Shown here piece after piece: positions 35,825 to 60,943 of a DNA stretch of 64,000 nt (its first letter is position 1; every line of letters starts with the position of its first letter). Made by a program: the position numbers and the translations under genes. The notes under the pieces are model-generated. The model did not search any database. It had not been told where the DNA came from and was given only the letters and a program-made list of their open reading frames with translations. Location: assembly GCF_014230465.1 (NCBI RefSeq), contig NZ_JAAXCY010000004.1, positions 617,956-681,955 of the forward strand, in the 5' to 3' direction. Source of the DNA: Pseudomonas cremoris. Lineage in GTDB: Bacteria > Pseudomonadota > Gammaproteobacteria > Pseudomonadales > Pseudomonadaceae.

Positions 35825-37138
35825 ATGCACCTGCAAAAACAGGCCAGTGTTGCCAAGTTCAAGAGTAAGGAAGCACTGATCGGGATTATTGGTCTTGGTT
35901 ATGTGGGATTGCCTTTAATGCTTCGGTATAACTCGATTGGTTTTCGAGTGCTGGGTATAGATATAGATTCAACTAAGGTTGAAAAATTGAATGCAGGCGA
36001 TAGTTATATTGAGCATATTTCATCTCTCAGGATTTCTGAGGCGCGAAAATCCGGGTTTGAGGCAACCGAAGACTTTCGTCGCGTTGCCGAATGTGACGCA
36101 TTGATTCTGTGTGTGCCGACACCGCTGAACAAGTATCGCGAACCAGATATGAGCTTTGTGATTGATACGACTGATGCGATTAAACCCTACCTACGAGCGG
36201 GTCAGGTAATTTCGTTAGAGAGCACCACTTATCCGGGTACTACGGAAGAGGAGCTATTACCCCGAGTTCAAGAGGGTGGCTTGATAGTCGGTCAAGATAT
36301 TTTCTTGGTCTATTCACCTGAGCGAGAAGATCCGGGTAACCAAAACTTTGAAACACGTACTATCCCTAAAATTATCGGGGGTGATACGCCAGCCTGCCTG
36401 GAGGTTGGAACGGCCCTATATGAGCAGGCAATTGATCAAGTGGTGCCGGTCAGTTCTACTAAAGCGGCTGAGATGACCAAGCTGCTGGAGAATATCCATC
36501 GCGCGGTGAATATCGGTTTGGTCAACGAGATGAAAATCGTTGCTGACCGCATGGGAATTGATATTTTTGAAGTTGTCGATGCAGCTGCCACCAAACCGTT
36601 TGGCTTCACTGCCTATTACCCTGGGCCCGGCCTAGGCGGCCATTGCATTCCGATCGATCCCTTCTATTTAACATGGAAGGCACGTGAGTATGGTTTGCAT
36701 ACTCGATTCATTGAGTTGTCCGGCGAAGTCAATCAAGCAATGCCCGAGTACGTGGTCAGCAAGCTGGTAGATGGCCTCAATGAGCATGGCAAGGCGCTGA
36801 AGGGGAGCAGGGTCTTGGTATTGGGTATCGCCTACAAAAAGAACGTAGACGATATGCGTGAGTCGCCCTCGGTCGAAATAATGGAGCTGTTAGAGGCTAA
36901 GGGGAGCTTGATCGCATATAGCGACCCCCATGTCCCAGTATTCCCAAAGATGCGAGAGCATCACTTCACACTTAGTAGCGAAGTTTTAACGAGCGAGAAT
37001 CTCGCAAGTTTTGATGCTGTTGTACTTGCTACAGATCATGACAAATTTGACTACGAGTTAATCAAGTCTTCCGCTCGACTAATTGTTGACAGTCGAGGGA
37101 AATACCGTACGGCTGCGCCGCATATCATTAAGGCCTGA
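35825..37138 (+). CDS. wbpA: UDP-GlcNAc 6-dehydrogenase WbpA
   Basis: 437 residues, the length of PAO1 WbpA. The NAD motif [11 protein letters not shown] is at about 20-30, and the catalytic Cys lies in [13 protein letters not shown]. The C-terminal UDP-binding domain contains [15 protein letters not shown]. It oxidises UDP-GlcNAc to UDP-GlcNAcA, the first step to 2,3-diamino uronic acids. It opens the O-antigen operon and is followed by a 77-bp gap holding a hairpin, then wbpB. Codon use is clearly less GC-rich than in genes left of 34 kb. A related Vi-antigen type enzyme is less likely given the wbpB-D-E neighbours. Confidence 0.93.
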
Positions 37139-37156
37139 TCTTTTGCTTGATGTGCA

Positions 37157-37188
37157 TTTCCAGCCACTTAAGCGTTAGTGGCTGGAAA
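37157..37188. repeat. Perfect 12-bp hairpin between wbpA and wbpB
   Basis: TTTCCAGCCACT (37157-37168) and AGTGGCTGGAAA (37177-37188) are exact complements around an eight-base loop. No T-run follows, so it looks more like an mRNA processing or stability element than a terminator. Confidence 0.7.
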
Positions 37189-37203
37189 CCTCTCATTTCA
37201 TAA

Positions 37204-38166
<963 letters not shown>

Positions 38167-38180
38167 CTGTGCATTCATTG

Positions 38181-38200
38181 GGCGGTCGTTGATGACCGCC
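38181..38200. repeat. Short hairpin after wbpB
   Basis: GGCGGTC and GACCGCC form a perfect seven-base stem with a six-base loop, 15 bp after the wbpB stop. The following ATTTATAAC is AT-rich but not a proper T-run. Confidence 0.5.
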
Positions 38201-38348
38201 ATTTATAACTCTGTATTTTCAAAAACGCGTGAATGAATATCACGAGCACTTTCAACGATTCGATAGCTCGATAATTTGAGATATAGACTGCTCGTAATTA
38301 AGGATTTTGCCCTTCGTTATACAGAACTGTCTGATGTGGCCTTTGTTC

Positions 38349-38455
38349 ATATTTTGATCTTCAATGCACTCGGCTATCCGGACAAATTCAGAAAAGGTCA
38401 GGAAAATTCGGTTGCAAAGGTGTTGGATCGCTGCCAGTACGTGCTAGGGCCATTG
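38349..38455 (+). pseudogene. Decayed fragment of the 5' end of a wbpE-like gene
   Basis: Bases 38414-38452 match wbpE 39280-39318 at 30 of 39 positions (AKVLDRCQYVLGP against [13 protein letters not shown] in translation). Just upstream, in another frame, FDLQ and SGQIQKR resemble the FIDLKxQQxRIK start of WbpE proteins, so a frameshift lies between. It fills part of the 464-bp wbpB-wbpD gap and looks like a recombination scar. Confidence 0.5.
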
Positions 38456-38630
38456 AATTCCAGCTTTGTCCCATACCTTTTTTTTGCGAAAACTCCTTTT
38501 TCGATGGTAAATTGCTCTGTTTAGTTAGCCGCTTTCTGAGTGAGGCTGGGTCCCTTGATTGCGCCCAGTTCGTAGCTCGATTAAAAAGAATTGCTCGTCT
38601 CCAATCGTAAATGACCATCAGGTGTTATCT

Positions 38631-39221
38631 ATGCCGCACTATCAACACCCTTCCGCCATTATCGATCCTGGCGCCCAGATCGGTGACTCGTCAAGAATTT
38701 GGCATTTTGTCCATGTTTGCGCGGGTGCGCGCATTGGTGAAGGGGTGTCGTTAGGGCAGAACGTGTTTGTCGGAAACAAAGTTATAATCGGCAACCACTG
38801 CAAGATCCAAAATAATGTTTCTGTCTACGATAACGTTACGTTGGAGGAAGGCGTCTTTTGTGGACCGAGCATGGTGTTCACCAACGTTTATAATCCACGA
38901 TCACTGGTTGAAAGAAAAAGTGAGTATCGAGACACTCTCGTAAAAAAGGGAGCGACGTTAGGCGCGAATTGCACGATCGTATGTGGTGTGACGATTGGTG
39001 CGTTTTCGTTTGTGGGGGCCGGAGCTGTTGTCAACAAAAATGTGCCCGACTACGCGTTGGTGGTTGGCGTTCCGGCTCGCCAGATTGGTTGGATGAGTGA
39101 GTTTGGCGAGCAGCTTGACCTTCCAGTCAATGGTACAGGTGAGGCGATTTGCATTCATACGAGGGCACGCTATGTGTTAGCGGGCGAGCGCGTTAACAAG
39201 GTGGAAGTGGGCCATGATTGA
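38631..39221 (+). CDS. wbpD: UDP-GlcNAc3NA N-acetyltransferase WbpD
   Basis: 196 residues, a left-handed beta-helix acetyltransferase with hexapeptide repeats from about 15 to 150 ([40 protein letters not shown]). [13 protein letters not shown] and [10 protein letters not shown] are typical of WbpD/WlbB. It acetylates the 3-amino group made by WbpE, completing UDP-GlcNAc3NAcA. The ATG at 38631 is chosen because AGGT lies 9 nt before it and it gives the family length; the open frame upstream covers scar sequence. It overlaps wbpE by eight bases. Confidence 0.93.
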
Positions 39222-40305
39222 ATTTATCGATCTGAAGAAGCAGCAGTCACGCATCAAAAGCAACATCGATCGAGCGATCGCAAAGGTACTGGACCACGGC
39301 CAGTATATTCTTGGGCCAGAGGTTTCGGAGTTGGAGACACAGCTCGCGAAGTTTGTAGGGGTGGAATATTGCATTACCTGCGCTAATGGTACTGACGCCC
39401 TTCAAATCGTTCAAATGGCTATGAATATTGGGCCTGGGGATGAAGTAATTACCCCTGGATTTACCTACATTGCTACCGCTGAAACTGTGGCTCTCTTGGG
39501 TGCCAAGCCAGTCTATGTAGACATAGATCCGCGTACTTATAACCTTGATCCTGGAAAGCTAGAAGCCGCCATTACACCCAAGACTAAGGCCATTATCCCA
39601 GTTTCACTTTACGGGCAGTGTGCCGACTTCGATGCGATTAACGAGATCGCCCAGCGTTATGGTATTCCGGTGATTGAGGATGCTGCGCAAAGCTTTGGTG
39701 CTACGTATAAGGGGCGTAGATCTTGTGGTTTATCCAACGTTGCCTGCACCAGCTTCTTTCCCAGCAAGCCGTTAGGGTGCTACGGGGATGGTGGCGCAAT
39801 CTTTACCAATGACGGGGAACTGGCAAGCGTCATGAGGCAGATAGCGCGGCATGGACAAGATCGTCGCTACCATCACGTACGTGTAGGAGTAAATAGCCGG
39901 TTGGATACTATACAAGCCGCTATTCTTTTAGAGAAGCTCAGTATTTTTGAAGAAGAAATATCACTTCGTACTGCCGTTGCGGAAAACTATGAACGGTTGC
40001 TGAGGGCAGTGGGAGTCGAAGGCTTACCGTTCATTGCTGAAGGCAATACTAGTGTATATGCGCAGTACACTTTATGCGTTGAAAACCGAGACAACTTGCA
40101 GTTAAGTCTCAAAGAAAAGGGTATCCCAACGGTTGTTCATTATCCTATTCCTGTGAATCAACAGCCCGCGGTAGCGGATATATCCGTTGATTTGCCTGTA
40201 GGTGACAAAATTGCTAAGTGTGTAGTGAGCCTACCCATGCATCCCTACCTGACACACGAGCAACAACTGTCGGTTGTGTCTGCTTTGGCAGGCGAATGGC
40301 GTTGA
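39214..40305 (+). CDS. wbpE: UDP-3-keto-GlcNAcA aminotransferase WbpE
   Basis: 363 residues of the DegT/StrS family and close to PAO1 WbpE ([40 protein letters not shown]). The PLP Lys is in [16 protein letters not shown]. It transfers an amino group, from glutamate in PAO1, to C3. The wbpA-B-D-E set matches PAO1 without wbpC. The stop lies inside the first codons of wzx. Confidence 0.95.
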
Positions 40306-49170: not shown

Positions 49171-49171
49171 G

Positions 49172-49954
49172 ATGCTCAGGCCCAGAATTATTCCATGTTT
49201 GTTGATCCAGGACGGCGGATTGGTTAAAACCGTTCGTTTTAAGGATCCAAAATATGTTGGGGATCCTATCAATGCCGTGAAGATCTTCAATGAAAAAGAA
49301 GCGGACGAACTGATAGTCCTTGATATAGACGCCACCACAAAAGGCAAAGAACCAAATTATAAGCGAATTGCCCATTTAGCAGCAGAGTGCCGGATGCCAC
49401 TGTGCTACGGAGGTGGCATCCGTACCGCTGAGCAGGCCAAGGCAATCATTAGCCTTGGTGTAGAGAAGGTTGCGATCAGCGCCTCTGCAGTGGAGAACCC
49501 TCAGCTTGTTTCGCGTATTGCCGAAGAAATTGGCACGCAGAGCGTGGTGGTCGTTCTTGATTACAAGAAGCGCTTGCTTAGCAAACATCACGATGTTTGG
49601 ACGCACAACGGAACTGTCAATACTAAGCGAAACGTACTGGATGTTGCTCTCGAGATGGAGCGCTTGGGCGCAGGCGAGATTGTTATCAACTCTATAGATC
49701 ACGATGGGCGAATGGAGGGATATGACCTTAATTTGGCGACTCGGCTCAGGCAGGCTATCAACATTCCAATTACTGTTCTGGGTGGCGCTGGCGCGTTGGA
49801 GCATATGCGGGACGTTGTTGCCGCGTGTGGTGTCGTAGGTGTAGCCGCCGGCAGTTTCTTTGTGTTCAAAGGACCTTATAAAGCCGTCCTTATCAGCTAC
49901 CCGAACGATCAACAGAAGAATGAGGTTGTCTATTCAGCCTTGCGAACTAACTAA
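49172..49954 (+). CDS. hisF: HisF-type ammonia-channel subunit for WbpG (HisF2)
   Basis: 260 residues, a (beta-alpha)8 barrel. Asp130 is kept (VVVVLDYKKR), but the other catalytic residue of histidine-pathway HisF, Asp11, is Leu here (PCLLIQDGG in place of PCLDVxDG). The phosphate-binding glycines CYGGGIR and VLGGAGA remain. Loss of Asp11 argues that it no longer makes imidazole glycerol phosphate and only carries ammonia from HisH2 to WbpG. Starts one base after the hisH2 stop codon. Confidence 0.92.
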   Translation: MLRPRIIPCLLIQDGGLVKTVRFKDPKYVGDPINAVKIFNEKEADELIVLDIDATTKGKEPNYKRIAHLAAECRMPLCYGGGIRTAEQAKAIISLGVEKVAISASAVENPQLVSRIAEEIGTQSVVVVLDYKKRLLSKHHDVWTHNGTVNTKRNVLDVALEMERLGAGEIVINSIDHDGRMEGYDLNLATRLRQAINIPITVLGGAGALEHMRDVVAACGVVGVAAGSFFVFKGPYKAVLISYPNDQQKNEVVYSALRTN

Positions 49955-49984: not shown

Positions 49985-51019
49985 ATGTTTAATGGAAAAA
50001 AGCTTCTAATCTCGGGTGGCACAGGTTCATTCGGCAATGCCGTGCTTAAACGCTTTCTCAATACGGATATTGCTGAAATTCGTATTTTCAGCCGTGATGA
50101 GAAAAAGCAAGATGATATGCGTAAACGTTATGCCAATAGTAAGCTGAAGTTTTACATTGGTGACGTGCGTGATTATCAAAGTGTCCTGAATGCTACTCGA
50201 GGTGTAGATTATATTTTCCATGCGGCGGCATTGAAGCAAGTACCGTCCTGTGAGTTTCACCCGATGGAGGCCGTAAAAACAAACGTTATCGGAACAGATA
50301 ATGTGCTTGAAGCTGCAATCCAAAATGGCGTCAAGCGGGTGGTTTGCTTGAGTACGGACAAAGCGGTGTACCCCATTAATGCCATGGGTATTTCCAAAGC
50401 AATGATGGAAAAGGTGATGGTCGCCAAGTCGCGTAATGTGGACGAAAGCAAGACAGTTATCTGTGGGACGCGTTACGGCAATGTCATGGCTTCGCGCGGA
50501 TCGGTTATTCCTCTGTTTATTGATCAAATCCGTGCCGGAATTCCGCTTTCAATAACCGACCCCAATATGACGCGTTTCATGATGACTTTGGCGGACGCGG
50601 TTGACCTGGTGCTGTATGCCTTTAAGCATGGCAACAATGGAGATATGTTTGTCCAAAAGGCGCCCGCCGCCACAGTGGAAACATTGGCCCGTGCACTGAC
50701 TATCATGGTTAACAAACCTGAGCACCCGATACAAGTTATCGGGACTCGTCATGGCGAAAAGCTTTACGAGGCACTTTTGAGCCGTGAGGAGATGGCGTGT
50801 GCCGAGGACATGGGAGCTTATTTCCGAGTACCGCCTGATTTGCGCGATTTAAACTATAGTAAGTTTGTGGAGCAAGGCGAGGAAAAGATTTCGCACGCAG
50901 TGGACTATAACTCTCATAATACTGAGCGGCTGGATGTTGAAGGGATGCAACAATTGCTTCTCAAGCTTGATTTCATGCATGCCATTCAGCGTGGTGAGCA
51001 TGCGACGCCCGAGGAGTGA
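49985..51019 (+). CDS. fnlA: UDP-GlcNAc C6-dehydratase / C5-epimerase FnlA (WbjB)
   Basis: 344 residues, an extended SDR: SGGTGSFGNAVLKRFL at about 10-25, FHAAALKQVPSCE, and an active-site region STDKAVYPINAMGISK where Met replaces the usual Tyr, as in FnlA, WbjB and the WbpM catalytic domain. It starts the path from UDP-GlcNAc to UDP-N-acetyl-L-fucosamine. fnlB follows within 3 bp. The three fnl genes form a complete cassette. Confidence 0.93.
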   Translation: MFNGKKLLISGGTGSFGNAVLKRFLNTDIAEIRIFSRDEKKQDDMRKRYANSKLKFYIGDVRDYQSVLNATRGVDYIFHAAALKQVPSCEFHPMEAVKTNVIGTDNVLEAAIQNGVKRVVCLSTDKAVYPINAMGISKAMMEKVMVAKSRNVDESKTVICGTRYGNVMASRGSVIPLFIDQIRAGIPLSITDPNMTRFMMTLADAVDLVLYAFKHGNNGDMFVQKAPAATVETLARALTIMVNKPEHPIQVIGTRHGEKLYEALLSREEMACAEDMGAYFRVPPDLRDLNYSKFVEQGEEKISHAVDYNSHNTERLDVEGMQQLLLKLDFMHAIQRGEHATPEE

Positions 51020-51021
51020 CC

Positions 51022-52140
51022 ATGAAAGTACTTGTTACGGGAGTCAACGGATTTATCGGCATGAACTTGATCGCGCATTTGAACGAGCGCAAGGACGTCG
51101 ATATTTTACGGTTTGCCCGCACAGACAGTCTTCATGAATTACGCGATCGGGTGGCTCAAGTGGACTTCATCTTCCATTTGGCCGGTGTGAACCGCCCGGA
51201 AAAGCAGGAGGAATTTCAAGTAGGCAATACTGATTTGACACGAGCGTTGTGTAATGCAGTTGTAGCCAGTGGGCGTAAAATCCCGCTGTTGTACACCTCG
51301 TCTACACAGGCAGAGCACAATAATGCTTATGGGTTGAGCAAGCTTGGTGCTGAGAGGGAACTTGCAGATCTAGCGTCCAAGCATGGGAGCAGGGTCCACC
51401 TTTTTCGGTTGCCGAATGTCTTTGGCAAGTGGGCGCGCCCAAACTATAACTCTGCCGTTGCGACATTTTGCCATAATATCGCTCGCCAACTACCCATACA
51501 GATTAACGATCCTGCCGCAGAAGTCACACTTGTTTATATTGACGATGTAATCAAGCAGTTCATTTCAGTTATGGATGGCGGGCTTGTTGACCCATCCTTC
51601 CCGGTAATCACGCCCCAGTATCGGGTAACGGTAGGCTGGATAGCGGAACAGTTGAGCGCGTTCCGTAAGAGCCGCGAAAATATGACCACTGAGGCGGTGG
51701 GGCTGGGGTTGGTCAGGGCGCTTTATTCAACCTATCTGAGCTACCTACCTCCTGAGGATTTCACTTATGAAGTCCCCAAGTATCAAGACAATCGTGGCAC
51801 TTTTGTCGAAATGCTCAAGACCCGGGACTCAGGTCAATTTTCTTTTTTTACTGCACACCCGGGAATCACGCGTGGTGGGCATTACCACCACACCAAGACG
51901 GAAAAGTTCCTGGTCATTAGAGGCCATGCGCGTTTCTGTTTTCGCCATATCGTTACGGGCGAGTTTTATGAGCTTTTCACCACCGGTGACGAACCGCTAA
52001 TTGTCGAGACGGTGCCGGGATGGACTCACGATATTACTAATATTGGAGGTGAAGAGATGATTGTTATGCTTTGGGCTAACGAGATTTTTGATAGAGAGAA
52101 TCCGGATACCTATGCCCTCCCTGTTGGCACGAAAGTCTGA
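51022..52140 (+). CDS. fnlB: UDP-sugar C4-reductase FnlB (WbjC) with cupin domain
   Basis: 372 residues. N-terminal SDR half: VTGVNGFIGMNL at 5-16 and the catalytic YGLSK after SSTQAEHNNA. C-terminal cupin half from about 245: RGTFVEMLK, GGHYHHTKTEKFLVIRGHAR. This two-part build is the mark of FnlB/WbjC. It reduces the 4-keto intermediate to UDP-L-PneNAc (2-acetamido-6-deoxy-L-talose). The ATG at 51022 has GAGGAG five bases upstream; the in-frame GTG at 51016 lies within that box. Confidence 0.93.
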   Translation: MKVLVTGVNGFIGMNLIAHLNERKDVDILRFARTDSLHELRDRVAQVDFIFHLAGVNRPEKQEEFQVGNTDLTRALCNAVVASGRKIPLLYTSSTQAEHNNAYGLSKLGAERELADLASKHGSRVHLFRLPNVFGKWARPNYNSAVATFCHNIARQLPIQINDPAAEVTLVYIDDVIKQFISVMDGGLVDPSFPVITPQYRVTVGWIAEQLSAFRKSRENMTTEAVGLGLVRALYSTYLSYLPPEDFTYEVPKYQDNRGTFVEMLKTRDSGQFSFFTAHPGITRGGHYHHTKTEKFLVIRGHARFCFRHIVTGEFYELFTTGDEPLIVETVPGWTHDITNIGGEEMIVMLWANEIFDRENPDTYALPVGTKV

Positions 52141-52160
52141 GTGAGTCAGTAGAGAATCTC

Positions 52161-53291
52161 ATGAATAAGTTAAAAGTCGTTACTGTCGTAGGCACCCGTC
52201 CGGAGATTATTCGCCTCTCCAGAGTGATGGCAGCGCTCGATGATCACTGTGAGCACGTTTTGGTTCACACCGGCCAAAACTACGATTACGAACTCAATCA
52301 GATTTTTTTCGATGATTTGGGTATTCGTAAACCTGACTATTTCCTTAATGCCGCAGGCGCCAGTGGTGCTGAAACAATTGGCAATGTGATTATCGCAGTT
52401 GATCGTGTACTGGCGGAGGTAGTGCCCGAAGCGTTGTTGGTATTGGGAGACACAAACAGTTGTATGGCAGTCATTCCAGCGAAGCGGCGTAAGATACCCA
52501 CGTTTCACATGGAGGCTGGAAACCGTTGTTTCGATATGCGAGTCCCCGAAGAAATTAATCGGCGCATTGTTGACCATACTGCTGATATCAATCTTACCTA
52601 CAGCACCATTGCTCGAGATTACTTGTTGCGTGAAGGTCTATCTCCAGACATGGTCATTAAGACAGGGAGCCCGATGTTTGAGGTGCTTACCTATTATCGT
52701 GAGGGTATCGATAGTTCTGATGTGCTTGAGCGACTGGGCCTGGAATACGGAAAGTTTTTCATTGTTAGCGCCCATCGTGAAGAAAATATAGACTCAGACA
52801 CAAATTTTCTTAAACTTGTCGGCGTACTGAATACTGTAGCAGAGCAATTTGGTTTTCCGGTTGTCGTGTCTACTCATCCCCGGACGCAGAAGAGAGTCGA
52901 TGCGTTGGGTGTGACGTTTCATAAAAATGTTCGCTTGCTGAAACCGATGGGTTTTAAAGATTATAATAAATTGCAGGTTAGTTCTAAGGCCGCGCTTTCG
53001 GACAGTGGAACTATTAACGAAGAATCGTCAATTCTTAACTTTCCTGCCCTGAACCTACGGGAGGCTCATGAACGACCAGAAGGGATGGAAGAAGCTGCAG
53101 TAATGATGGTTGGACTTGAAAGTGGTCGCGTTCTGCAGGCGCTTCAGGTTTTGGAGGGACAGAAGCGCGGTTGCGATCGCAGTCTGCGCTTGGTCAGTGA
53201 TTACAGTATGCCAAATGTGTCCGATAAAATTGTCAGGATTATTCATAGCTACCGTGACTATGTAATGCGCGTTGTCTGGAAAAGGTACTAA
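52161..53291 (+). CDS. fnlC: UDP-sugar 2-epimerase FnlC (WbjD)
   Basis: 376 residues of the WecB family. VVGTRPEIIRLSRVMAALDD, HTGQNYDYELNQIFFDDLGI, VLGDTNSCMAVIPAKRRKIP and MEAGNRCFDMRVPEEINRR match FnlC/WbjD rather than WbpI, which begins IGARPQFIKAS. It epimerises C2 to give UDP-L-FucNAc, finishing the fnl path. It is the only 2-epimerase gene in the cluster. Confidence 0.92.
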   Translation: MNKLKVVTVVGTRPEIIRLSRVMAALDDHCEHVLVHTGQNYDYELNQIFFDDLGIRKPDYFLNAAGASGAETIGNVIIAVDRVLAEVVPEALLVLGDTNSCMAVIPAKRRKIPTFHMEAGNRCFDMRVPEEINRRIVDHTADINLTYSTIARDYLLREGLSPDMVIKTGSPMFEVLTYYREGIDSSDVLERLGLEYGKFFIVSAHREENIDSDTNFLKLVGVLNTVAEQFGFPVVVSTHPRTQKRVDALGVTFHKNVRLLKPMGFKDYNKLQVSSKAALSDSGTINEESSILNFPALNLREAHERPEGMEEAAVMMVGLESGRVLQALQVLEGQKRGCDRSLRLVSDYSMPNVSDKIVRIIHSYRDYVMRVVWKRY

Positions 53292-53296
53292 AAGGA

Positions 53297-54529
53297 ATGG
53301 CTGTTCGCGTTTTGCTTTTAACCCAATGGTTTGATCCGGAGCCCACATTCAAGGGGATGATATTCGCCCGCGAGTTAGTTAAGCAGGGGCTTCAGGTCGA
53401 AGTGGTTACTGGTTTTCCAAATTATCCCGGTGGTAAAATTTACCCTGGATATAAAGTGCGGTTACTACAGCGGGAAGTTATTGATGGTGTGTTTGTTACG
53501 CGCCTGCCACTCTACCCGAGCCATGGTCAAAGCGGTTTGGGGCGTATTTTCAACTACGTAAGCTTCGCAGCCGCAAGCCTGTTTTACGGATTATTTTTAG
53601 CAAAGCGTGCGGATGTTATTTACGCCTATCACCCACCTCTAACGGTGGGCTTTGCCGCTTCAATCATTCGTTTTTTTCGAAGAATCCCGGTAGTGTATGA
53701 CGTTCAGGATATGTGGCCTGATACGCTCCGTGCTACTGGGATGTTTTCCAATGAGCGCGCTTTGAAAATCGTGTCGAAGGGGTGTAAGTGGGTTTATAAA
53801 AGTGTCGATCATATCGCTGTGCTTTCGCCTGGATTTAAACGGCTATTGATAGAGCGTGACGTACCCCGCGAAAAGATTGAAGTTATCTATAATTGGTGTG
53901 CTGAAGATACAATTACTGATAGTGACGGTTCGTTGCCTACCGGTTTCCCCGACTCCAGTACGTTCCGTGTCTTATTTGCAGGTAATATGGGGAAAGCGCA
54001 GGCGCTGGATTCGGTTCTGGAAGCTGCCAGAATTCTACAGGCCAAAAACACCGCTGTGACGTTTGTGTTTTTAGGTGGGGGAGTTGAGGTCGCGAGCCTG
54101 AAAAAGAAAGCTGCAGATTACGAAATTCATAATGTTGTATTTTTGGCCGCGGTGCCTATGTCGCAGGTCGGTAACTATCTAAGTAGTGCTGACGCATTAT
54201 TGGTACATTTGAAAAAAGACCCTTTATTTACAATAACTATTCCATCTAAAACTCAAGCTTATATGGCTGCTGGAAAACCATTATTGATGGCTGTCGATGG
54301 GGATGCTGCGGATTTGGTCTCCCAAGCCCAATGTGGCGTTACAGCGCAATCCGAAGATCCTGAATCAATGGTTATGGCTGTTGATTCGCTAATCGCGGCA
54401 GCACCTATTGACAGGAAAGTGATGGCGGAAAATGGAAGACGTTACTACCGCGAAAATTTATCGCTGGAGAAGGGGGTTCAAGCATTTGCTTCAATCTTCC
54501 ATCAGTTAGCACTGCGTAAAAGGCGTTGA
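53297..54529 (+). CDS. wbuB: GT4 glycosyltransferase, WbuB-like (probable L-FucNAc transferase)
   Basis: 410 residues. The start VLLLTQWFDPEPTFKGMIFA, FPNYPGGKIYPGYK, VYDVQDMWPDTLRATGMF and the final IPSKTQAYMAAGKPLL are those of the WbuB/WbjE group, which adds FucNAc to the first sugar. It stands directly after the fnl genes, 5 bp from fnlC, which supports L-FucNAc as donor. Membrane-associated, cytoplasmic face. Confidence 0.82.
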   Translation: MAVRVLLLTQWFDPEPTFKGMIFARELVKQGLQVEVVTGFPNYPGGKIYPGYKVRLLQREVIDGVFVTRLPLYPSHGQSGLGRIFNYVSFAAASLFYGLFLAKRADVIYAYHPPLTVGFAASIIRFFRRIPVVYDVQDMWPDTLRATGMFSNERALKIVSKGCKWVYKSVDHIAVLSPGFKRLLIERDVPREKIEVIYNWCAEDTITDSDGSLPTGFPDSSTFRVLFAGNMGKAQALDSVLEAARILQAKNTAVTFVFLGGGVEVASLKKKAADYEIHNVVFLAAVPMSQVGNYLSSADALLVHLKKDPLFTITIPSKTQAYMAAGKPLLMAVDGDAADLVSQAQCGVTAQSEDPESMVMAVDSLIAAAPIDRKVMAENGRRYYRENLSLEKGVQAFASIFHQLALRKRR

Positions 54530-54571: not shown

Positions 54572-55165
54572 GTGCTGAAGCGGTCTATTGATATTGTCGC
54601 CTCATTTTTCGGTCTTTTATTTTTATCGCCGATCATAGCGTTTGTTGCATGGCAGATTAGTCGGAAGCTTGGCTCACCTGTGCTTTTTTGTCAGGTACGT
54701 CCGGGATTTCGGGGGAAGCCTTTCAAGATGATAAAGTTTCGCACCATGAAAGACGCTTTTGACTCTCAAGGCAATGCGTTGCCGGACAGTGAGAGAATGA
54801 CTGCCTTCGGTAGCTTTTTGCGGTCGAGCAGCCTGGATGAACTACCTGAATTGTGGAACGTCTTGAAAGGTGATATGAGCTTGGTCGGACCTCGTCCTTT
54901 GCTCATGGAGTACCTGCCCCTATATAATGCTGAGCAGTTGCGCCGGCATGATGCGCTTCCAGGTGTAACCGGTTGGGCGCAGATAAATGGGCGCAATGCG
55001 CTTAGTTGGGATGATAAATTTAAGCTTGATGTTTGGTATGTAGACAATCAAACGATATGGCTGGATTTGAAAATCGTTTTCCTTACCGTCAAGAAGGTTT
55101 TGGTAAGGGAAGGAATCAGCGGAGACGGTGAAGTGACGATGTCTAAGTTCACTGGGAATGATTAA
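54572..55165 (+). CDS. Phosphoglycosyl transferase, PglC-like (initiating enzyme)
   Basis: 197 residues, the size of the small monotopic phosphoglycosyl transferases. One N-terminal re-entrant helix (SIDIVASFFGLLFLSPIIAF), then FKMIKFRTM, the catalytic Asp-Glu dyad in SSLDELPELWNVLKGDMSLV, GPRPLL and PGVTGWAQINGRN. It moves a sugar 1-phosphate from UDP-sugar to undecaprenyl phosphate and so sets the first sugar of the repeat. The start is GTG with GAGG 8 nt upstream. Its PglC likeness and the pglD-like gene behind it point to a bacillosamine-type first sugar. PAO1 uses the unrelated WbpL for this step. Confidence 0.88.
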   Translation: MLKRSIDIVASFFGLLFLSPIIAFVAWQISRKLGSPVLFCQVRPGFRGKPFKMIKFRTMKDAFDSQGNALPDSERMTAFGSFLRSSSLDELPELWNVLKGDMSLVGPRPLLMEYLPLYNAEQLRRHDALPGVTGWAQINGRNALSWDDKFKLDVWYVDNQTIWLDLKIVFLTVKKVLVREGISGDGEVTMSKFTGND

Positions 55166-55237
55166 TTTTGCCTGTACTGCAGTATTGTTTAAGTGTTCGA
55201 TGTTTATAGTCGTAATGATTTGTGCGGTGGAGCCGAT

Positions 55238-55882
55238 ATGGACGTGTCCAAAAGACTGATTATTGTAGGATTTAGTGGTTTCGGTAAAGAGGTCTATTGG
55301 TTGGCGCGCCGATTGGGCATCACTGTAGTTGGCTTTCTCGATGACAATCCTGCCGTGCAGGGAGTGACATATCGCGACTCCCCAGTCTTGGGCACGGTTG
55401 ACAGTTGGGTCAATTATCCAGACTGTTTGTATGTGATCGCGGTTGGTAGCCCACGAATACGGAAAAAAATATATGAGAATATTGCCGCATCAGGGATGCC
55501 TCAATTTGCGACCTTAATTGATCCTGCAGCAGTTGTTAACAGCGAGTTTGTATCGATCGGAGAGGGTAGCATTATCTGTGCTGGCACGATATTGACGGTT
55601 GATATAGTAGTCGGTGCTCATGTCATTATCAATTTGAACTGCACAATTGGTCATGACGCCGTAATTCGAGACTTTGTTACTGTGGCACCATTGGTTGCTG
55701 TGTCGGGTAATGTCAAGTTATCGGAGTGTTGTGAGGTTGGGACCGGTGCGTCTATTCGGCAGGGTGTAACGTTGGGGCAAGGTTCCATGTTAGGAATGGG
55801 AGGGGTGTTAACCAAAAACGTCGCTGAGAATACCGTCTTTTTTGGGAACCCCGCAAAAGCCTTTAAAACAATAGCTGGTTGA
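55238..55882 (+). CDS. NeuD/PglD-like sugar N-acyltransferase
   Basis: 214 residues from the ATG at 55238, which has GGTGGAG just upstream; a start at 55193 lacks one. An N-terminal Rossmann part (IIVGFSGFGKEVYWLARR, GFLDDN) binds the UDP-sugar. A left-handed beta-helix follows (about 90-205) with the catalytic His in LNCTIGHDAVIRDF. This is the PglD build, which acylates the 4-amino group of UDP-4-amino sugars. The next gene, a 3-hydroxybutyryl-CoA dehydrogenase, suggests that the acyl group here may be 3-hydroxybutyryl and not acetyl. The stop overlaps an in-frame ATG of the next gene. Confidence 0.82.
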   Translation: MDVSKRLIIVGFSGFGKEVYWLARRLGITVVGFLDDNPAVQGVTYRDSPVLGTVDSWVNYPDCLYVIAVGSPRIRKKIYENIAASGMPQFATLIDPAAVVNSEFVSIGEGSIICAGTILTVDIVVGAHVIINLNCTIGHDAVIRDFVTVAPLVAVSGNVKLSECCEVGTGASIRQGVTLGQGSMLGMGGVLTKNVAENTVFFGNPAKAFKTIAG

Positions 55883-55896
55883 TGAGGCGTGCTTTT

Positions 55897-56763
55897 ATGT
55901 TTGATTTAGAGAGGCGCCTGCATGTTGGTATCGTTGGCACCGGTACAATGGGCAAGGGAATAGTTCAAATTCTTGTACAGTCGGATTGCGTTGACTCCGT
56001 TTCCTGGAAAGGACGATCGTCTGAGTCCGTAACCAATGCGTTGGCAGAAATTGAACTTCAGTTTGAACGGTTGGTTAATAAAAAACGCTTGGATGCTACG
56101 CAAGCACGGCACTTCATTAAAAAAATTAAAGTGGTTCGTGATTACTCCGACTTTGAGAATGTCGAGATTTTTATTGAGGCAGTCGCGGAGGATATTGACG
56201 TCAAGCGTTTGGTGTTCAGTGAGCTTTCAAAGGTGTCCAGCGAGAATACTCTGTTGGCATCGAACACATCATCTCTTTCAGTTACCCACCTGGCGAGCTT
56301 AACAACGCATCCAGAAAACGTTGTCGGTTTGCATTTTTTTAACCCCGCACCCGTTATGAAACTCGCCGAAGTCATTGCAGGGCTAACGACCTCCAAGGCT
56401 ACGGTTGCTCGCGCCCTGGATTTTGCTCGTATGCTTGGTAAAGATCCGGTGCTCGTGAATGAGGCCCCGGGTTTCATCGTCAATCGTATGCTCATTCCGA
56501 TGATTAACGAGGCTATTGGTATTCTCGCGGAGGATGTTGCTACGGCGGAGGAGATTGACAAGGCGATGCGCTTGGGCGCAAATCACCCTATCGGGCCATT
56601 AGCGCTGGCTGACCTTATTGGAAATGATGTCAATCTTTCCATCATGGAAACCCTTCATAACGAAACCGGCGATCCTAAATACCGTGCGCACCCGCTTCTA
56701 CGGAAGATGGTTCGCGGCAACCTCCTGGGACGTAAAACAGGACGCGGTTTCTTTTCATACTAA
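55897..56763 (+). CDS. 3-hydroxybutyryl-CoA dehydrogenase-like enzyme in the O-antigen cluster
   Basis: 288 residues from the ATG at 55897 (GAGG 9 nt upstream; an ATG at 55882 would add five residues). NAD motif GIVGTGTMGKGIVQ, catalytic His in VGLHFFNPAPVMKLAEVI, then NEAPGFIVNRMLIPMINEA, all as in Hbd/PaaH. It interconverts acetoacetyl-CoA and (S)-3-hydroxybutyryl-CoA. Such an enzyme is out of place among sugar genes unless it feeds an acyltransferase; it lies exactly between the PglD-like and aminotransferase genes. N-(3-hydroxybutyryl) amino sugars are known in Pseudomonas O-antigens and flagellar glycans. The link is inference. Confidence 0.85.
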   Translation: MFDLERRLHVGIVGTGTMGKGIVQILVQSDCVDSVSWKGRSSESVTNALAEIELQFERLVNKKRLDATQARHFIKKIKVVRDYSDFENVEIFIEAVAEDIDVKRLVFSELSKVSSENTLLASNTSSLSVTHLASLTTHPENVVGLHFFNPAPVMKLAEVIAGLTTSKATVARALDFARMLGKDPVLVNEAPGFIVNRMLIPMINEAIGILAEDVATAEEIDKAMRLGANHPIGPLALADLIGNDVNLSIMETLHNETGDPKYRAHPLLRKMVRGNLLGRKTGRGFFSY

Positions 56764-56782
56764 TTGGGAGCGGTAGCCAGAG

Positions 56783-57961
56783 ATGCTCAATACGCCTTTT
56801 TCTGCTTGGCCTTTTTTCAGCGAAGAAGAGGCCAACGCGGTTCGCGACGTCATTTTGTCAAACAAGGTCAATTACTGGACCGGGCAAGAAACCCGAGAGT
56901 TTGAGAAGGAATTCGCAGCCTGGGCCGGCACGAGCTACGCGGTCGCGCTGGCTAACGGCACAGTTGCGCTGGACGTGGCTCTAAAGGCTTTAGGCATCCG
57001 TGAAGGCGATGAGGTCATTGTTACGCCACGTACTTTTTTGGCGTCTGTGTCTTCGATCGTTAATGCTGGTGCGGTCCCCGTCTTTGCTGAAGTCGACCCG
57101 GATTCGCAAAACATTACGGTTGATACTATCAGGGCAGTGTTTACGGAGCGGACCCGCGCGATTATCTGTGTTCACCTGGCCGGTTGGCCGTGCGACATGG
57201 ACCCAATCATGGACTTTGCTGACAGCCATGCTTTGAAGGTCATAGAGGATTGTGCGCAGGCGCATGGCGCTCTTTATAAAGGCCGTCCTGTTGGGTCCAT
57301 CGGGCATATCGGAGCTTGGTCTTTTTGTCAGGACAAAATCATGACAACCGGTGGTGAGGGAGGGATGGTCACCACCAACGATCGGTCTTTGTTCTTGGAC
57401 ATGTGGTCGTTCAAGGATCATGGAAAAAGTTGGCAGGCGGTCTATGAGCGCGAGCATCCCCCTGGATTTCGCTGGGTACATGATAGCTTTGGTACCAACT
57501 GGCGCATGCTGGAAGTACAAGGGGTCATAGGCCGGATTCAGTTGCGTCGAATGGCGTCTTGGCATCGTAGCCGTATCGCCAACGCCCAGCGTATTTGGTC
57601 CGTTGCTAAAGAGATCAAGGGGTTACGTGTTCCTGATATTCCTGCGCAAATCGTCCATGCGGCGTATAAATGCTACGTATTTGTGAAGCCCAATGAGCTT
57701 CGAGCCGATTGGAGCCGCGATCGAATCCTTGCGGAAATTTCTGCGCAAGGTGTGCCTTGCTATTCTGGTTCTTGCTCCGAAGTCTATTTAGAGAAAGCGT
57801 TCGATGGCACCGGGTGGCGTCCTACCACACGCTTTGAAGTTGCCAAGGAGTTGGGCGAAACGAGCCTTATGTTTTTAGTTCATCCTTCCCTCAGCGCGGA
57901 CGAGATAGATAAAACCTGTGGTGTATTATCCGCAGTGATGCGATCAGCAACCCTAACGTGA
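56783..57961 (+). CDS. DegT/DnrJ/EryC1/StrS aminotransferase (probable UDP-4-keto sugar aminotransferase)
   Basis: 392 residues. ANGTVALDVALKALGI, DEVIVTPRTFLASVSSIVNA, EDCAQAHGALYKGRPVGSIG and the PLP Lys in SFCQDKIMTTGGEGG show the sugar-aminotransferase family. It is not close to WbpE. With WbpM providing a 4-keto-6-deoxy UDP-GlcNAc and a PglD-like enzyme nearby, it should put the amino group on C4 (PglE role). GGGAG precedes the ATG at a slightly long distance. Two hairpins follow the stop. Confidence 0.85.
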   Translation: MLNTPFSAWPFFSEEEANAVRDVILSNKVNYWTGQETREFEKEFAAWAGTSYAVALANGTVALDVALKALGIREGDEVIVTPRTFLASVSSIVNAGAVPVFAEVDPDSQNITVDTIRAVFTERTRAIICVHLAGWPCDMDPIMDFADSHALKVIEDCAQAHGALYKGRPVGSIGHIGAWSFCQDKIMTTGGEGGMVTTNDRSLFLDMWSFKDHGKSWQAVYEREHPPGFRWVHDSFGTNWRMLEVQGVIGRIQLRRMASWHRSRIANAQRIWSVAKEIKGLRVPDIPAQIVHAAYKCYVFVKPNELRADWSRDRILAEISAQGVPCYSGSCSEVYLEKAFDGTGWRPTTRFEVAKELGETSLMFLVHPSLSADEIDKTCGVLSAVMRSATLT

Positions 57962-58074: not shown

Positions 58075-58746
58075 ATGAATTCTGGAAGCTTTTTAATTCA
58101 GAAGAATTTTTTTGATCAGGACAAGTTGGTAGCTATTAGAGCGCTTGCTTTAGAGTTGGAAAATAAAAAAACAAGTGTTCACGAAGGTGGCAAGTACGGG
58201 GACATACAGTGGCATAAGATTGAGCTTGATCCAAATATCCATTCATTCATGAGTGAGATTTATAATTTTTTGGGTGCTGAGAAAGACGGCATATGCGTTT
58301 TTTACTATTTGTCGCCAGGCGCAGTCTTGCATCCGCATCGCGATCTGACCGGCGCCTCGAGTAATGCCAGAATTCGATTTCATGTTCCTGTTATCACGAA
58401 TGATCGTGTCTTTTTCAATGTTTCAAAAGAGCGTGTGATTATGGCAGAGGGTGAACTCTGGGCATTGGACACATCTTATTTGCATGAGGTAAGAAATGAA
58501 AGTGATTGCACGCGGGTTCATATCGTCATCGAATGTCCGATTAATAAGAGCGTGAGTTCAAAGCTTCCGGCCAAAAATCTGTCTGGTCGAATTCATGATG
58601 TTTATTTCTTGGTTATTTTGTTATCTAGTTTTGTAAAATCTGTTTTGATTAACATTTGGAGAGACCCAAAATACTTTTTGGCTCAAATGCGGATGATTAA
58701 GAAGTTTGTTGCTTGGCGCGTATTTGGGAAAAAAGATGTAAAGTGA
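58075..58746 (+). CDS. AspH/LpxO-type Fe(II)/2-oxoglutarate oxygenase
   Basis: 223 residues. The facial triad is visible: His88-x-Asp90 in LHPHRDLTG and distal His137 in TSYLHEVRNES, with Arg147 (CTRVHIVIE) placed to bind 2-oxoglutarate. RIRFHVPVITND between them is the usual strand of aspartyl/asparaginyl hydroxylases, the family that includes the lipid A hydroxylase LpxO. A hydrophobic stretch at about 176-196 may anchor it to the membrane. GAGGGAAG gives a strong ribosome-binding site. It sits last before wbpM with its own hairpins on both sides. A hydroxylation of an acyl or amino-acid substituent of the glycan is possible; the substrate is unknown. Confidence 0.8.
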   Translation: MNSGSFLIQKNFFDQDKLVAIRALALELENKKTSVHEGGKYGDIQWHKIELDPNIHSFMSEIYNFLGAEKDGICVFYYLSPGAVLHPHRDLTGASSNARIRFHVPVITNDRVFFNVSKERVIMAEGELWALDTSYLHEVRNESDCTRVHIVIECPINKSVSSKLPAKNLSGRIHDVYFLVILLSSFVKSVLINIWRDPKYFLAQMRMIKKFVAWRVFGKKDVK

Positions 58747-58948: not shown

Positions 58949-60943
58949 ATGAGTAGATTGCGGACCGCGCTTCTGGGGCTGCCTCGGCGGAAGAAGCGAA
59001 TGATCCAGGTCGCTACCGACATTTTGGTAGTTTGGGCGGCATTGTGGCTGGCTTTTGTCGTCAGGCTAGGATTGGACGAGATGGTGAATCCTCTGAAGCT
59101 TCATCTGTGGCTGTTCATCGCCGCCCCGATTGTCGCGATTCCGCTTTTTGTCCGTTTTGGTCTATATCGCGCAGTGATGCGATATTTTGGTAACGACGCA
59201 CTGATTGCGATCATAAAGGCTGTCACCCTTTCATCGTTGATTCTGGGCATTGTCGTTTATTGGTACGGCAACCACGAAAATGTGGTGCCCCGCTCTATAA
59301 TCTTTATCTACTGGTGGCTCAGCTTGATTGCTGTAGGCGGCCTGCGCCTCGCAATGCGCCAGTATTTTCTGGGCGATTGGTTCACCGCGGCTCAATACGT
59401 TCCTTTCACAAGCCGTGAGGACGGCTTGCCCCGTGTTGCGATTTATGGGGCGGGTGCTGCCGGGAACCAATTGGTGGCAGCGTTGCGCATGGGAAGAGTC
59501 ATGCGACCGGTAGCATTTATTGATGATGACAACGGTATTTCTGACCGTGTCATTTCAGGGTTGCACGTATACAAACCCAAGCATATTCAGCAGATGATCG
59601 AAGCTACCGGCGCCCAGGAAATACTGCTGGCGATTCCTTCATCCAACCGCGGTCGTCGTCGCGAGATCCTCGGTTTTCTTGAGGGCTTTCCTCTGCACGT
59701 ACGAAGCGTCCCGGGTTTCATGGATTTGGCCAGCGGGCGAGTGAAGGTTGATGATATTCAAGAGGTCGATATTGCGGATCTTCTCGGGCGTGATTCCGTT
59801 CCGGCGCAGGATGAGTTGCTTGAACACTGCATCAAGGGGCAAACCGTCCTGGTGACAGGTGCTGGTGGTTCAATCGGCTCTGAACTCTGTCGACAAATAT
59901 TGGCTCTTCGCCCGAAAACCTTGCTGCTGTTCGAGCACAGTGAATTCAACCTGTACAGCATTCTCTCGGAACTCGAACAACGGGTGATCCGCGAAGCGTT
60001 GCCGGTAAGACTTCTACCTATATTGGGTTCAGTGCGAATCCCATCCAAGCTGTTGGACGTAATGAAGAGTTGGCGTGTTGACACGGTTTATCATGCAGCC
60101 GCCTACAAGCACGTACCGATGGTGGAGCATAATATCGCAGAAGGCTTATTGAATAACGTGATTGGAACGTTGAACACCGCTCAAGCAGCACTGCAGGCCG
60201 GGGTGGCCAACTTTGTGCTTATTTCGACGGATAAAGCTGTCAGGCCAACTAATGTGATGGGGAGTACTAAGCGCTTGGCGGAACTCACGTTGCAGGCACT
60301 CAGCAAGGAGCTGGCGCCCGTGATGTTTGGCGACAAATCTAATATATCCCGTGTCAACAAAACCCGTTTTACGATGGTGCGTTTTGGCAATGTATTAGGT
60401 TCTTCCGGTTCAGTAATTCCGTTATTTCATAAGCAAATCAAGTCGGGTGGACCATTAACTGTTACCCACCCCAAAATCACTCGTTACTTCATGACTATCC
60501 CCGAAGCCGCGCAATTGGTCATTCAGGCTGGCTCAATGGGGCAGGGGGGCGACGTGTTTGTACTCGACATGGGCGAGCCCGTAAAAATTGTCGAACTCGC
60601 CGAAAAGATGATCCACCTCTCCGGCTTGAGCGTGCGTTCCGACAAAAACCCCCACGGCGACATCGCCATTGAATTCACTGGGCTACGTCCCGGCGAAAAG
60701 CTTTACGAAGAGTTACTGATTGGCGATAACGTCGTCGCCACCCAGCACCCAATGATCATGAGTGCAAACGAAGACCATCTCTCTTGGGAAGTGCTTAAGG
60801 GCAAGCTGGTCGAGCTTCTGGCCGCAGTGGACCAAGACGACTACACCCGGGTCCGCCAACTCCTTCGCGACACCGTCAGTGGCTACTCCCCCGATGGGGA
60901 AATTGTCGATTGGATCTACCAACAGCGTCGACAGGAGCCCTGA
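58949..60943 (+). CDS. wbpM: UDP-GlcNAc 4,6-dehydratase WbpM
   Basis: 664 residues, the PAO1 WbpM size. Four N-terminal membrane helices (about 18-133), a first nucleotide-binding domain (AIYGAGAAGNQLV, about 170) and the catalytic SDR domain (TGAGGSIGSELCRQ, about 303). The active site STDKAVRPTNVMGSTKR has Met in place of Tyr. It makes UDP-4-keto-6-deoxy-GlcNAc, needed for most Pseudomonas O-antigens, and marks the right border of the locus. The 3' third is visibly more GC-rich than the 5' part. A terminator follows. Confidence 0.96.
   Translation: MSRLRTALLGLPRRKKRMIQVATDILVVWAALWLAFVVRLGLDEMVNPLKLHLWLFIAAPIVAIPLFVRFGLYRAVMRYFGNDALIAIIKAVTLSSLILGIVVYWYGNHENVVPRSIIFIYWWLSLIAVGGLRLAMRQYFLGDWFTAAQYVPFTSREDGLPRVAIYGAGAAGNQLVAALRMGRVMRPVAFIDDDNGISDRVISGLHVYKPKHIQQMIEATGAQEILLAIPSSNRGRRREILGFLEGFPLHVRSVPGFMDLASGRVKVDDIQEVDIADLLGRDSVPAQDELLEHCIKGQTVLVTGAGGSIGSELCRQILALRPKTLLLFEHSEFNLYSILSELEQRVIREALPVRLLPILGSVRIPSKLLDVMKSWRVDTVYHAAAYKHVPMVEHNIAEGLLNNVIGTLNTAQAALQAGVANFVLISTDKAVRPTNVMGSTKRLAELTLQALSKELAPVMFGDKSNISRVNKTRFTMVRFGNVLGSSGSVIPLFHKQIKSGGPLTVTHPKITRYFMTIPEAAQLVIQAGSMGQGGDVFVLDMGEPVKIVELAEKMIHLSGLSVRSDKNPHGDIAIEFTGLRPGEKLYEELLIGDNVVATQHPMIMSANEDHLSWEVLKGKLVELLAAVDQDDYTRVRQLLRDTVSGYSPDGEIVDWIYQQRRQEP

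What the first reader, a model, noticed from the sequence alone, without database searches (positions are those of the whole stretch)
54572..57961. PglC, PglD and aminotransferase genes interrupted by a 3-hydroxybutyryl-CoA dehydrogenase gene
Gene order is phosphoglycosyl transferase, N-acyltransferase, Hbd-like enzyme, C4 aminotransferase, with WbpM further on. A fatty-acid-type dehydrogenase has no evident role unless it makes the acyl donor. Predicted first sugar: QuiNAc4N carrying (S)-3-hydroxybutyryl on N4. This would be a self-contained donor-plus-transfer cassette.
Basis: inference. Interest (0 to 1): 0.7.

Follow-up and report, generated by a model that had tools for sequence, protein, structure and literature searches.

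The report
Swappable acyl cassette in O-antigen cluster
In a Pseudomonas gene cluster for surface sugars, a fat-metabolism-type enzyme sits beside the enzyme that probably attaches its product to a rare sugar, and the two genes together stand where related strains have a single acetyl-attaching gene, so the cell probably makes its own unusual chemical tag for its coat.

Summary
54572-57961 encodes a PglC-type phosphoglycosyl transferase (PGT), a PglD/VioB-type N-acyltransferase (NAT), a 3-hydroxyacyl-CoA dehydrogenase (HBD) and a UDP-sugar 4-aminotransferase (AMT), followed by an AspH-like gene and WbpM. Of 50 same-genus loci that have this AMT but no HBD, 46 align to the window's DNA on both sides of one interval and none within it; in 41 of 46 both edges fall within 25 bp of the PGT end and AMT start. 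In 38 of 50 the NAT is of another clade. So NAT and HBD differ as one block. Glycan-locus HBDs form one clade and lie against a left-handed-helix acyltransferase in 13 of 13 measured loci. Best reading: HBD makes (S)-3-hydroxybutyryl-CoA and NAT puts it on N4 of UDP-QuiNAc4N, probably the first sugar. That sugar, and ACP-based donor-plus-transferase cassettes, are known; I found no description of a CoA/HBD version. Against: four of ten VioB-like NAT loci lack HBD, Acinetobacter makes the sugar with a module listed without HBD, and the donor is untested.

The parts
54572..55165 (+). PglC-type monotopic phosphoglycosyl transferase (PGT), probable initiating enzyme
   Evidence: PF02397 209.6 bits; 59-82% identical PGT in the same-genus HBD-less loci with this AMT
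55238..55882 (+). PglD/VioB-type N-acyltransferase (NAT); longest ORF starts 55193
   Evidence: TIGR03570 above cut-off; AlphaFold model matches VioB 7txp at TM 0.94 and 49% identity; His139, presumed catalytic, invariant in 29 aligned rows
55897..56763 (+). 3-hydroxyacyl-CoA dehydrogenase of the 3-hydroxybutyryl-CoA type (HBD); longest ORF starts 55879
   Evidence: PF02737+PF00725; solved HBDs at 271-276 bits; His146, Glu158, Asn196 conserved in 86 of 86 rows (their catalytic role is recalled); one clade with other glycan-locus HBDs
56783..57961 (+). UDP-4-keto-6-deoxy-GlcNAc C4 aminotransferase (AMT, PglE/Pcryo_0638 type)
   Evidence: 7L7X at 578 bits; kinetics of Pcryo_0638 in PMC8040287 (passages)
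58075..58746 (+). AspH-like Fe(II)/2-oxoglutarate hydroxylase, possible acyl-group modifier
   Evidence: PF05118; H88, D90, H137, R147 invariant in 35 rows; fold matches AspH and prolyl hydroxylases at TM about 0.5; relatives share contig lengths with HBD relatives
58949..60943 (+). WbpM-type UDP-GlcNAc 4,6-dehydratase, supplies the 4-keto substrate of AMT
   Evidence: best NCBIfam PseB and FnlA, below their cut-offs; the name WbpM is recalled
49985..53291 (+). FnlA, FnlB, FnlC: UDP-L-FucNAc synthesis
   Evidence: FnlA 675 bits against a cut-off of 730; third gene wecB-type epimerase above cut-off; middle gene named by position and recall; same order upstream of PGT in many loci
53297..54529 (+). 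WbjE-like glycosyltransferase, probable FucNAc transferase
   Evidence: WcaI-type glycosyltransferase, 161.1 bits, below the cut-off of 276; the name WbjE is recalled
35825..40305 (+). WbpA/B/D/E-like set for a UDP-GlcNAc3N-uronic acid
   Evidence: nucleotide-sugar dehydrogenase above cut-off, GFO/IDH/MocA, hexapeptide transferase, DegT aminotransferase; the Wbp names are recalled

Best explanation
An acyl cassette for the first sugar of a Pseudomonas O antigen. WbpM makes UDP-4-keto-6-deoxy-GlcNAc, AMT turns it into UDP-QuiNAc4N, HBD reduces acetoacetyl-CoA from central metabolism to (S)-3-hydroxybutyryl-CoA, NAT transfers that group to N4, and PGT loads QuiNAc4N(S)Hb-1-phosphate onto undecaprenyl phosphate. 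The NAT+HBD pair stands where most related loci have a PglD-type acetyltransferase between PGT and AMT. Shown by sequence: the families, the order, the block difference and the HBD clade. Inferred: the reaction direction, the donor, the acceptor position and the first-sugar role.
For: Families and conserved residues. Block difference: 46 of 50 HBD-less loci align on both flanks, none within, with both edges within 25 bp of the PGT end and AMT start in 41 (examples). In 38 of 50 HBD-less loci NAT is of a different clade, with the PglB domain, while PGT and AMT stay 59-82 and 66-81% identical and WbpM, where fetched, 70-89%. HBD directly beside an acyltransferase of three kinds (VioB-, WeeI- and QdtC-like) in 13 of 13 loci (kinds). 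Lists of HBD and VioB-like NAT relatives share exact contig lengths 21 times against a mean of 0.16 for shifted lengths. QuiNAc4N with N4 (S)-3-hydroxybutanoyl is known in P. fluorescens IMV 247 and others (PMC8074265, passages). Acinetobacter qhbCB/gdr is assigned to the same sugar and qhbAB/gdr to the diacetyl form (PMC9676051, passages).
Against: Four VioB-like NAT loci (L176, L178-L180) have PGT-NAT-AMT without HBD in the 16 kb fetched, and of six order-level hits found by NAT alone two have HBD. The nearest solved NAT, VioB, is entitled an N-acetyltransferase, and I saw no residue that separates HBD+ from HBD- NATs in 11 aligned sequences. The WeeI-like NATs beside HBD in L116-L120 and L032 resemble Pcryo_0637, which uses acetyl-CoA. 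Four HBD-less loci have no room for a NAT between PGT and AMT (110-206 bp; L132, L135, L145, L157), and in L174 the order is AMT-PGT-NAT, so the interval is not always a NAT slot. No thiolase among the locus genes scanned. HBD falls below the cut-off of NF004474 (359.7 against 408). I know of no glycan from this strain.
Confidence: 0.74

Rival explanations
1. HBD supplies 3-hydroxybutyryl-CoA, but for another amino group in the repeat, such as N3 of the GlcNAc3N-uronic acid, through one of the other acyltransferases of the locus (38559, 41479, 42141, 45660).
For: The locus has a WbpA/B/D/E-like set, two hexapeptide transferases, one GNAT and one weak GNAT match below its cut-off. P. shigelloides O51 carries D-3-hydroxybutyryl on GlcNAc3NA next to amidinated L-FucN, an arrangement close to the one predicted here (PMC3210612, passages).
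Against: HBD differs from HBD-less loci together with NAT, not with those genes. Relatives of WbpA, WbpB, WbpD, the two GNAT-type genes and the second hexapeptide gene were found in 0 of 14 HBD loci at E<=1e-10, though only about 10-20 kb of each was at hand. The O51 group is D (R), whereas this family makes the L (S) form (recalled).
Confidence: 0.1
2. NAT is an acetyltransferase that makes UDP-diacetylbacillosamine, and HBD is a metabolic passenger without a role in the glycan.
For: Solved relatives are entitled acetyltransferases and Pcryo_0637 uses acetyl-CoA; NAT occurs without HBD.
Against: HBD is one clade found beside acyltransferases in 13 of 13 loci, keeps its His, Glu and Asn and differs with NAT at fixed borders.
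Confidence: 0.08
3. The final acyl group is not plain 3-hydroxybutyryl: the AspH-like enzyme hydroxylates it further, or HBD reduces a longer or branched 3-oxoacyl-CoA.
For: The AspH-like gene, with intact HxD...H and weak LpxO/OlsC similarity, lies between AMT and WbpM. Of its 24 closest relatives, 19 have contigs of 3 kb or more, and 6 of these 19 share the exact contig length with an HBD relative, against a mean of 0.017 for shifted lengths. Shewanella MR-4 Qui4N carries 3-hydroxybutyrate or 3-hydroxy-3-methylbutyrate depending on medium (PMC3210612, passages).
Against: No match in the 180 loci held, 14 HBD loci among them; the close copy in G335 stands alone, outside the polysaccharide locus of that genome, and G335 has no HBD of this clade. 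One of the six shared lengths is a whole genome. Substrate unknown.
Confidence: 0.25

Closest known systems
Acinetobacter qhbC-qhbB-gdr module (UDP-QuiNAc4NHb)
   Same: Same predicted sugar and the same acyltransferase, aminotransferase and dehydratase steps (PMC9676051, PMC3628348, passages)
   Different: Listed without a dehydrogenase; donor presumably from general metabolism (inference)
P. syringae viosamine island vioS-vioR-acp-vioB
   Same: Acyl-donor genes beside the amino-sugar acyltransferase; 3-hydroxybutyryl on Qui4N; the vioR mutant lacks the modified sugar (PMC3927599, passages)
   Different: ACP-based synthase and reductase; dTDP-Qui4N; flagellin, not O antigen
Flavobacterium psychrophilum wfpC-G R-group genes
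   Same: Fnl and PglE/PglF scaffold with exchangeable R-group genes including a PglD homologue; strains differing in R-group genes differ in LPS antigenicity (PMC6519341, passages)
   Different: Proposed type II fatty-acid-like route to 3,5-dihydroxyhexanoyl
Campylobacter pglC-pglD-pglE-pglF and Psychrobacter Pcryo_0637/0638
   Same: PGT, NAT, AMT and dehydratase steps (Campylobacter gene order recalled; Pcryo enzymes in PMC8040287, passages)
   Different: Acetyl group, no HBD known to me

Membership tests
(S)-3-hydroxybutyryl-CoA dehydrogenase | PF02737 and PF00725 domains over the full length | tested here: met
   182.1 and 117.1 bits
(S)-3-hydroxybutyryl-CoA dehydrogenase | catalytic His-Glu pair and Asn (roles recalled) | tested here: met
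   H146, E158, N196 (numbering from 55897) conserved in 33 of 33 clade rows and 53 of 53 others
(S)-3-hydroxybutyryl-CoA dehydrogenase | curated cut-off of NF004474 (PRK05808) | tested here: not met
   359.7 bits against 408: best model, but outside the curated subfamily
(S)-3-hydroxybutyryl-CoA dehydrogenase | reduces acetoacetyl-CoA | not testable with these tools
   no assay
NeuD/PglB/VioB sugar N-acyltransferase | TIGR03570 cut-off | tested here: met
   210.6 against 160.8
NeuD/PglB/VioB sugar N-acyltransferase | fold and presumed catalytic His | tested here: met
   model matches 7txp; His139 invariant in 29 rows
UDP-QuiNAc4NHb (qhb) module | acyltransferase, aminotransferase and dehydratase genes together | tested here: met
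UDP-QuiNAc4NHb (qhb) module | NAT of the QhbC type | not tested
   no labelled QhbC sequence was at hand; WeeI of strain AYE (4m9c), whose KL1 locus is described with qhbA (PMC3628348, passages), falls in another NAT clade
ACP-type donor cassette (vioS/vioR/acp; wfpC-G) | KAS III, SDR reductase and ACP genes in the cassette | tested here: not met
   the only genes between PGT and AMT are NAT and HBD

The most novel reading that the evidence does not exclude
The interval between the PGT and AMT genes of Pseudomonas O-antigen clusters is a general exchange slot for N4-acyl cassettes: most often a PglD-type NAT, otherwise NAT+HBD, a KAS III-SDR-NAT-KAS III set with a Rieske oxygenase (L152, L153), or GNAT sets (L138, L141). 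In the window's version the HBD-made hydroxybutyryl is further hydroxylated by the AspH-like enzyme, giving a dihydroxybutyryl sugar.
Probability: 0.25. Interest if true: 0.68.

Novelty: new variant of a known kind. Interest (0 to 1): 0.52.

Why it matters
Strains of F. psychrophilum that differ in the genes for the N4 R-group differ in LPS antigenicity (PMC6519341, passages). A gene pair that carries both donor synthesis and transfer would let an acyl group move between strains whatever the host's metabolism, and would let N4 acylation be read from genomes. It gives a direct test: NAT clade and the presence of HBD predict acetyl against 3-hydroxybutyryl. It also assigns a dedicated HBD clade, easily annotated as a fatty-acid enzyme, to glycan synthesis.

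Tried and rejected
Plasmid records: 33 records with an HBD match, all under 60% identity, and one record with a 43% NAT match, so no plasmid spread was seen. A strict NAT-HBD coupling was tested and rejected: four VioB-like NAT loci lack HBD. A residue signature separating HBD+ from HBD- NATs was looked for by eye in 11 sequences and not found. The class-level HBD search found nothing (0 of 369), but the tool notes that this shows little. The genome searches scored only a few candidates per genome (at most 6, 7), so matches can be missed. The contig-length result for the more distant NATs (0 of 43) is confounded, because only the 120 best HBDs were listed. That equal lengths mean the same contig is inference; 119 of the 120 AspH-like lengths were typed, one NAT has no length, and one further AspH/HBD coincidence (4045) lies among the more distant AspH relatives. 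The Fisher value is not used: loci are related and the HBD+ ones were chosen by HBD. Paper searches for anthrose and VioB gave nothing useful.

The NAT tree used 82 rows and carries a long-branch warning for the WeeI-like, L152/L153 and PglB rows.
Full report
What is there. The quartet lies near the 3' end of an O-antigen-type cluster with G+C 0.47 (35825-58746) against 0.61 in the first 30 kb of the window. From 35825 the cluster holds WbpA/B/D/E-like genes, a Wzx-type flippase, one GNAT and one weak GNAT match, a VimE-like deacetylase gene, a Wzy_C-type gene, a hexapeptide transferase, a glycosyltransferase, a WbpG-like amidotransferase with two HisH/HisF-like genes (not scanned; names recalled), FnlA-B-C, a WbjE-like glycosyltransferase, then the quartet, an AspH-like gene and WbpM. 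The four genes of the finding are as described. HBD keeps the family's His, Glu and Asn. NAT has the PglD/VioB fold.

How often. The window's own assembly is not held, so all comparisons are with relatives. In the genus search 10 of 398 genomes have an HBD match at E<=1e-80; nine are 64-70% identical and one (G396) is 49%. A family-level search of 198 genomes adds one (G643). AMT is commoner: 56 of 398 at E<=1e-140. Six of these 56 are HBD genomes; the loci of the other 50 hold no HBD.

Block difference. I aligned the window's DNA to all 50 HBD-less loci; in 46 both flanks aligned. In 46 of 46 the left match ends at or before the PGT end, give or take a base (within 25 bp of the stop in 41; earlier in five), and in 45 of 46 the right match begins within 25 bp of the AMT start (57158 in L175). 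Both hold in 41. No match lies between in any of the 46. In L174 the gene order differs (AMT-PGT-NAT), and in L132, L135, L145 and L157 only 110-206 bp lie between PGT and AMT. In 38 of the 50 loci the NAT falls with the Neisseria PglB acetyltransferase domain, apart from the window's NAT (99*). Nine of the 50 gave no separate NAT. One of these, L142, is a PGT-PglD fusion by Pfam, and L143 and L160 have PGT ORFs of similar length. L152 and L153 carry other genes in the interval: in L152 a Rieske oxygenase, two KAS III, an SDR and a PglD-like NAT by Pfam; in L153 similar ORFs by eye. L138 has two GNAT-type proteins and a partial DegT match, and L141 similar ORFs by eye.

HBD as a glycan clade. 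In a tree of 86 rows, 14 glycan-locus HBDs and 19 database relatives (surroundings not seen) form one set (99*), apart from the Pseudomonas paralogues; a Clostridiales row lies next to it (89). In 13 of 13 measured loci HBD lies within 55 bp (overlaps included) of a left-handed-helix acyltransferase on the same strand: VioB-like in L111, L112, L035 and L122; WeeI/Pcryo_0637-like in L116-L120 and L032; QdtC-like in L113-L115. The types rest on PDB matches of two L116 proteins and of the window NAT. L177 adds a fourteenth case from coordinates. Lists of the nearest HBDs and NATs share exact contig lengths 21 times against a mean of 0.16 after shifting. So this HBD clade occurs with different acyltransferases while staying beside one.

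Results against. The VioB-like NAT is not tied to HBD. In an order-level search by NAT, 6 of 390 genomes had it at E<=1e-40, and 2 of the 6 have HBD beside it (L122, L177). The other four (L176, L178, L179, L180) show PGT-NAT-AMT without HBD in the 16 kb fetched. Over all VioB-like NAT loci here HBD is present in 6 of 10, but four of the six came in through HBD or the window itself. WeeI-like L157 also lacks HBD. Pcryo_0637, a characterised relative, uses acetyl-CoA (PMC8040287, passages). HBD-less loci may draw (S)-3-hydroxybutyryl-CoA from general metabolism or may make acetyl sugars; this cannot be told here.

Chemistry. Three nucleotide sugars are predicted (GlcNAc3N-uronic acid type, L-FucNAc perhaps amidinated, QuiNAc4N-acyl) with two recognised glycosyltransferases and one PGT, which leaves the QuiNAc4N derivative for PGT (inference). 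(S)-3-hydroxybutanoyl on N4 of QuiNAc4N is recorded in P. fluorescens IMV 247, Plesiomonas 302-73, A. baumannii and others (PMC8074265, passages). In Acinetobacter and Hafnia the hydroxybutanoyl groups on Fuc3N and Qui3N are written (R), as is that of pseudaminic acid in Acinetobacter (PMC3726653, PMC4869667, passages), but an (S) group is also reported on a nonulosonic acid of Flexibacter (PMC3210612, passages). That this dehydrogenase family makes the (S) form is recalled. The match of configuration supports the reading without proving it.

Prior art. I saw listings and passages only, never a whole paper. Donor-plus-transferase cassettes are in print: P. syringae vioS/vioR/acp/vioB (PMC3927599) and F. 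psychrophilum wfpC-G (PMC6519341). A 3-hydroxybutyryl-CoA dehydrogenase gene is listed in a table for V. cholerae NRT36S, whose capsule genes lie in the LPS region, without a role in the passages I saw (PMC1847822). My searches showed no paper that assigns such a gene to N-acyl donor supply; most papers listed were not opened, and most subscription papers are not in the library. Hence 'new variant of a known kind'.

AspH-like gene. Its protein has intact HxD...H and Arg and an AspH/prolyl-hydroxylase fold. Of its 24 closest relatives 19 have contigs of 3 kb or more, and 6 of the 19 share the exact contig length with a listed HBD, against 0.017 after shifting; one of the six is a whole genome. 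It was absent from the 180 loci held. Of 22 genomes searched, G335 has a close copy (71%), outside its polysaccharide locus and without an HBD of this clade, and four have weak partial matches. Acyl hydroxylation is therefore an open lead only.

Noticed in passing
window 58075-58746: AspH-like Fe(II)/2-oxoglutarate hydroxylase gene (G+C 0.39) inside the O-antigen cluster; some relatives share contig lengths with HBD relatives.
   Followed up: partly
L152:2880-7529 and L153:3431-8077: Between PGT and AMT: Rieske oxygenase, two KAS III, SDR and PglD-like NAT (Pfam for L152, by eye for L153), probably another acyl-donor cassette.
   Followed up: partly
L138:4749-7580 and L141:4403-7240: Same interval filled by GNAT-type, partial DegT-type and GNAT/FemAB-type proteins (Pfam for L138 only).
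   Followed up: partly
L113, L114, L115: HBD of the glycan clade followed by a QdtC-like hexapeptide transferase, without a NeuD/PglD-type NAT found in the fetched stretch.
   Followed up: partly
L142:6004-7254 (also L143, L160 by length): PGT fused to a PglD-type acyltransferase domain (Pfam for L142 only).
   Followed up: partly
window 43103-44467: VimE-like UDP-diacetamido-glucuronate deacetylase (161.6 bits, below the cut-off of 440) in the same cluster as WbpABDE-like genes, suggesting a de-acetylated or re-acylated uronic acid.
   Followed up: no
window 47423-49954: WbpG-type amidotransferase (TIGR03573 above cut-off) followed by HisH/HisF-like genes directly upstream of FnlABC; suggests amidinated L-FucN, as in P. 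shigelloides O51.
   Followed up: no
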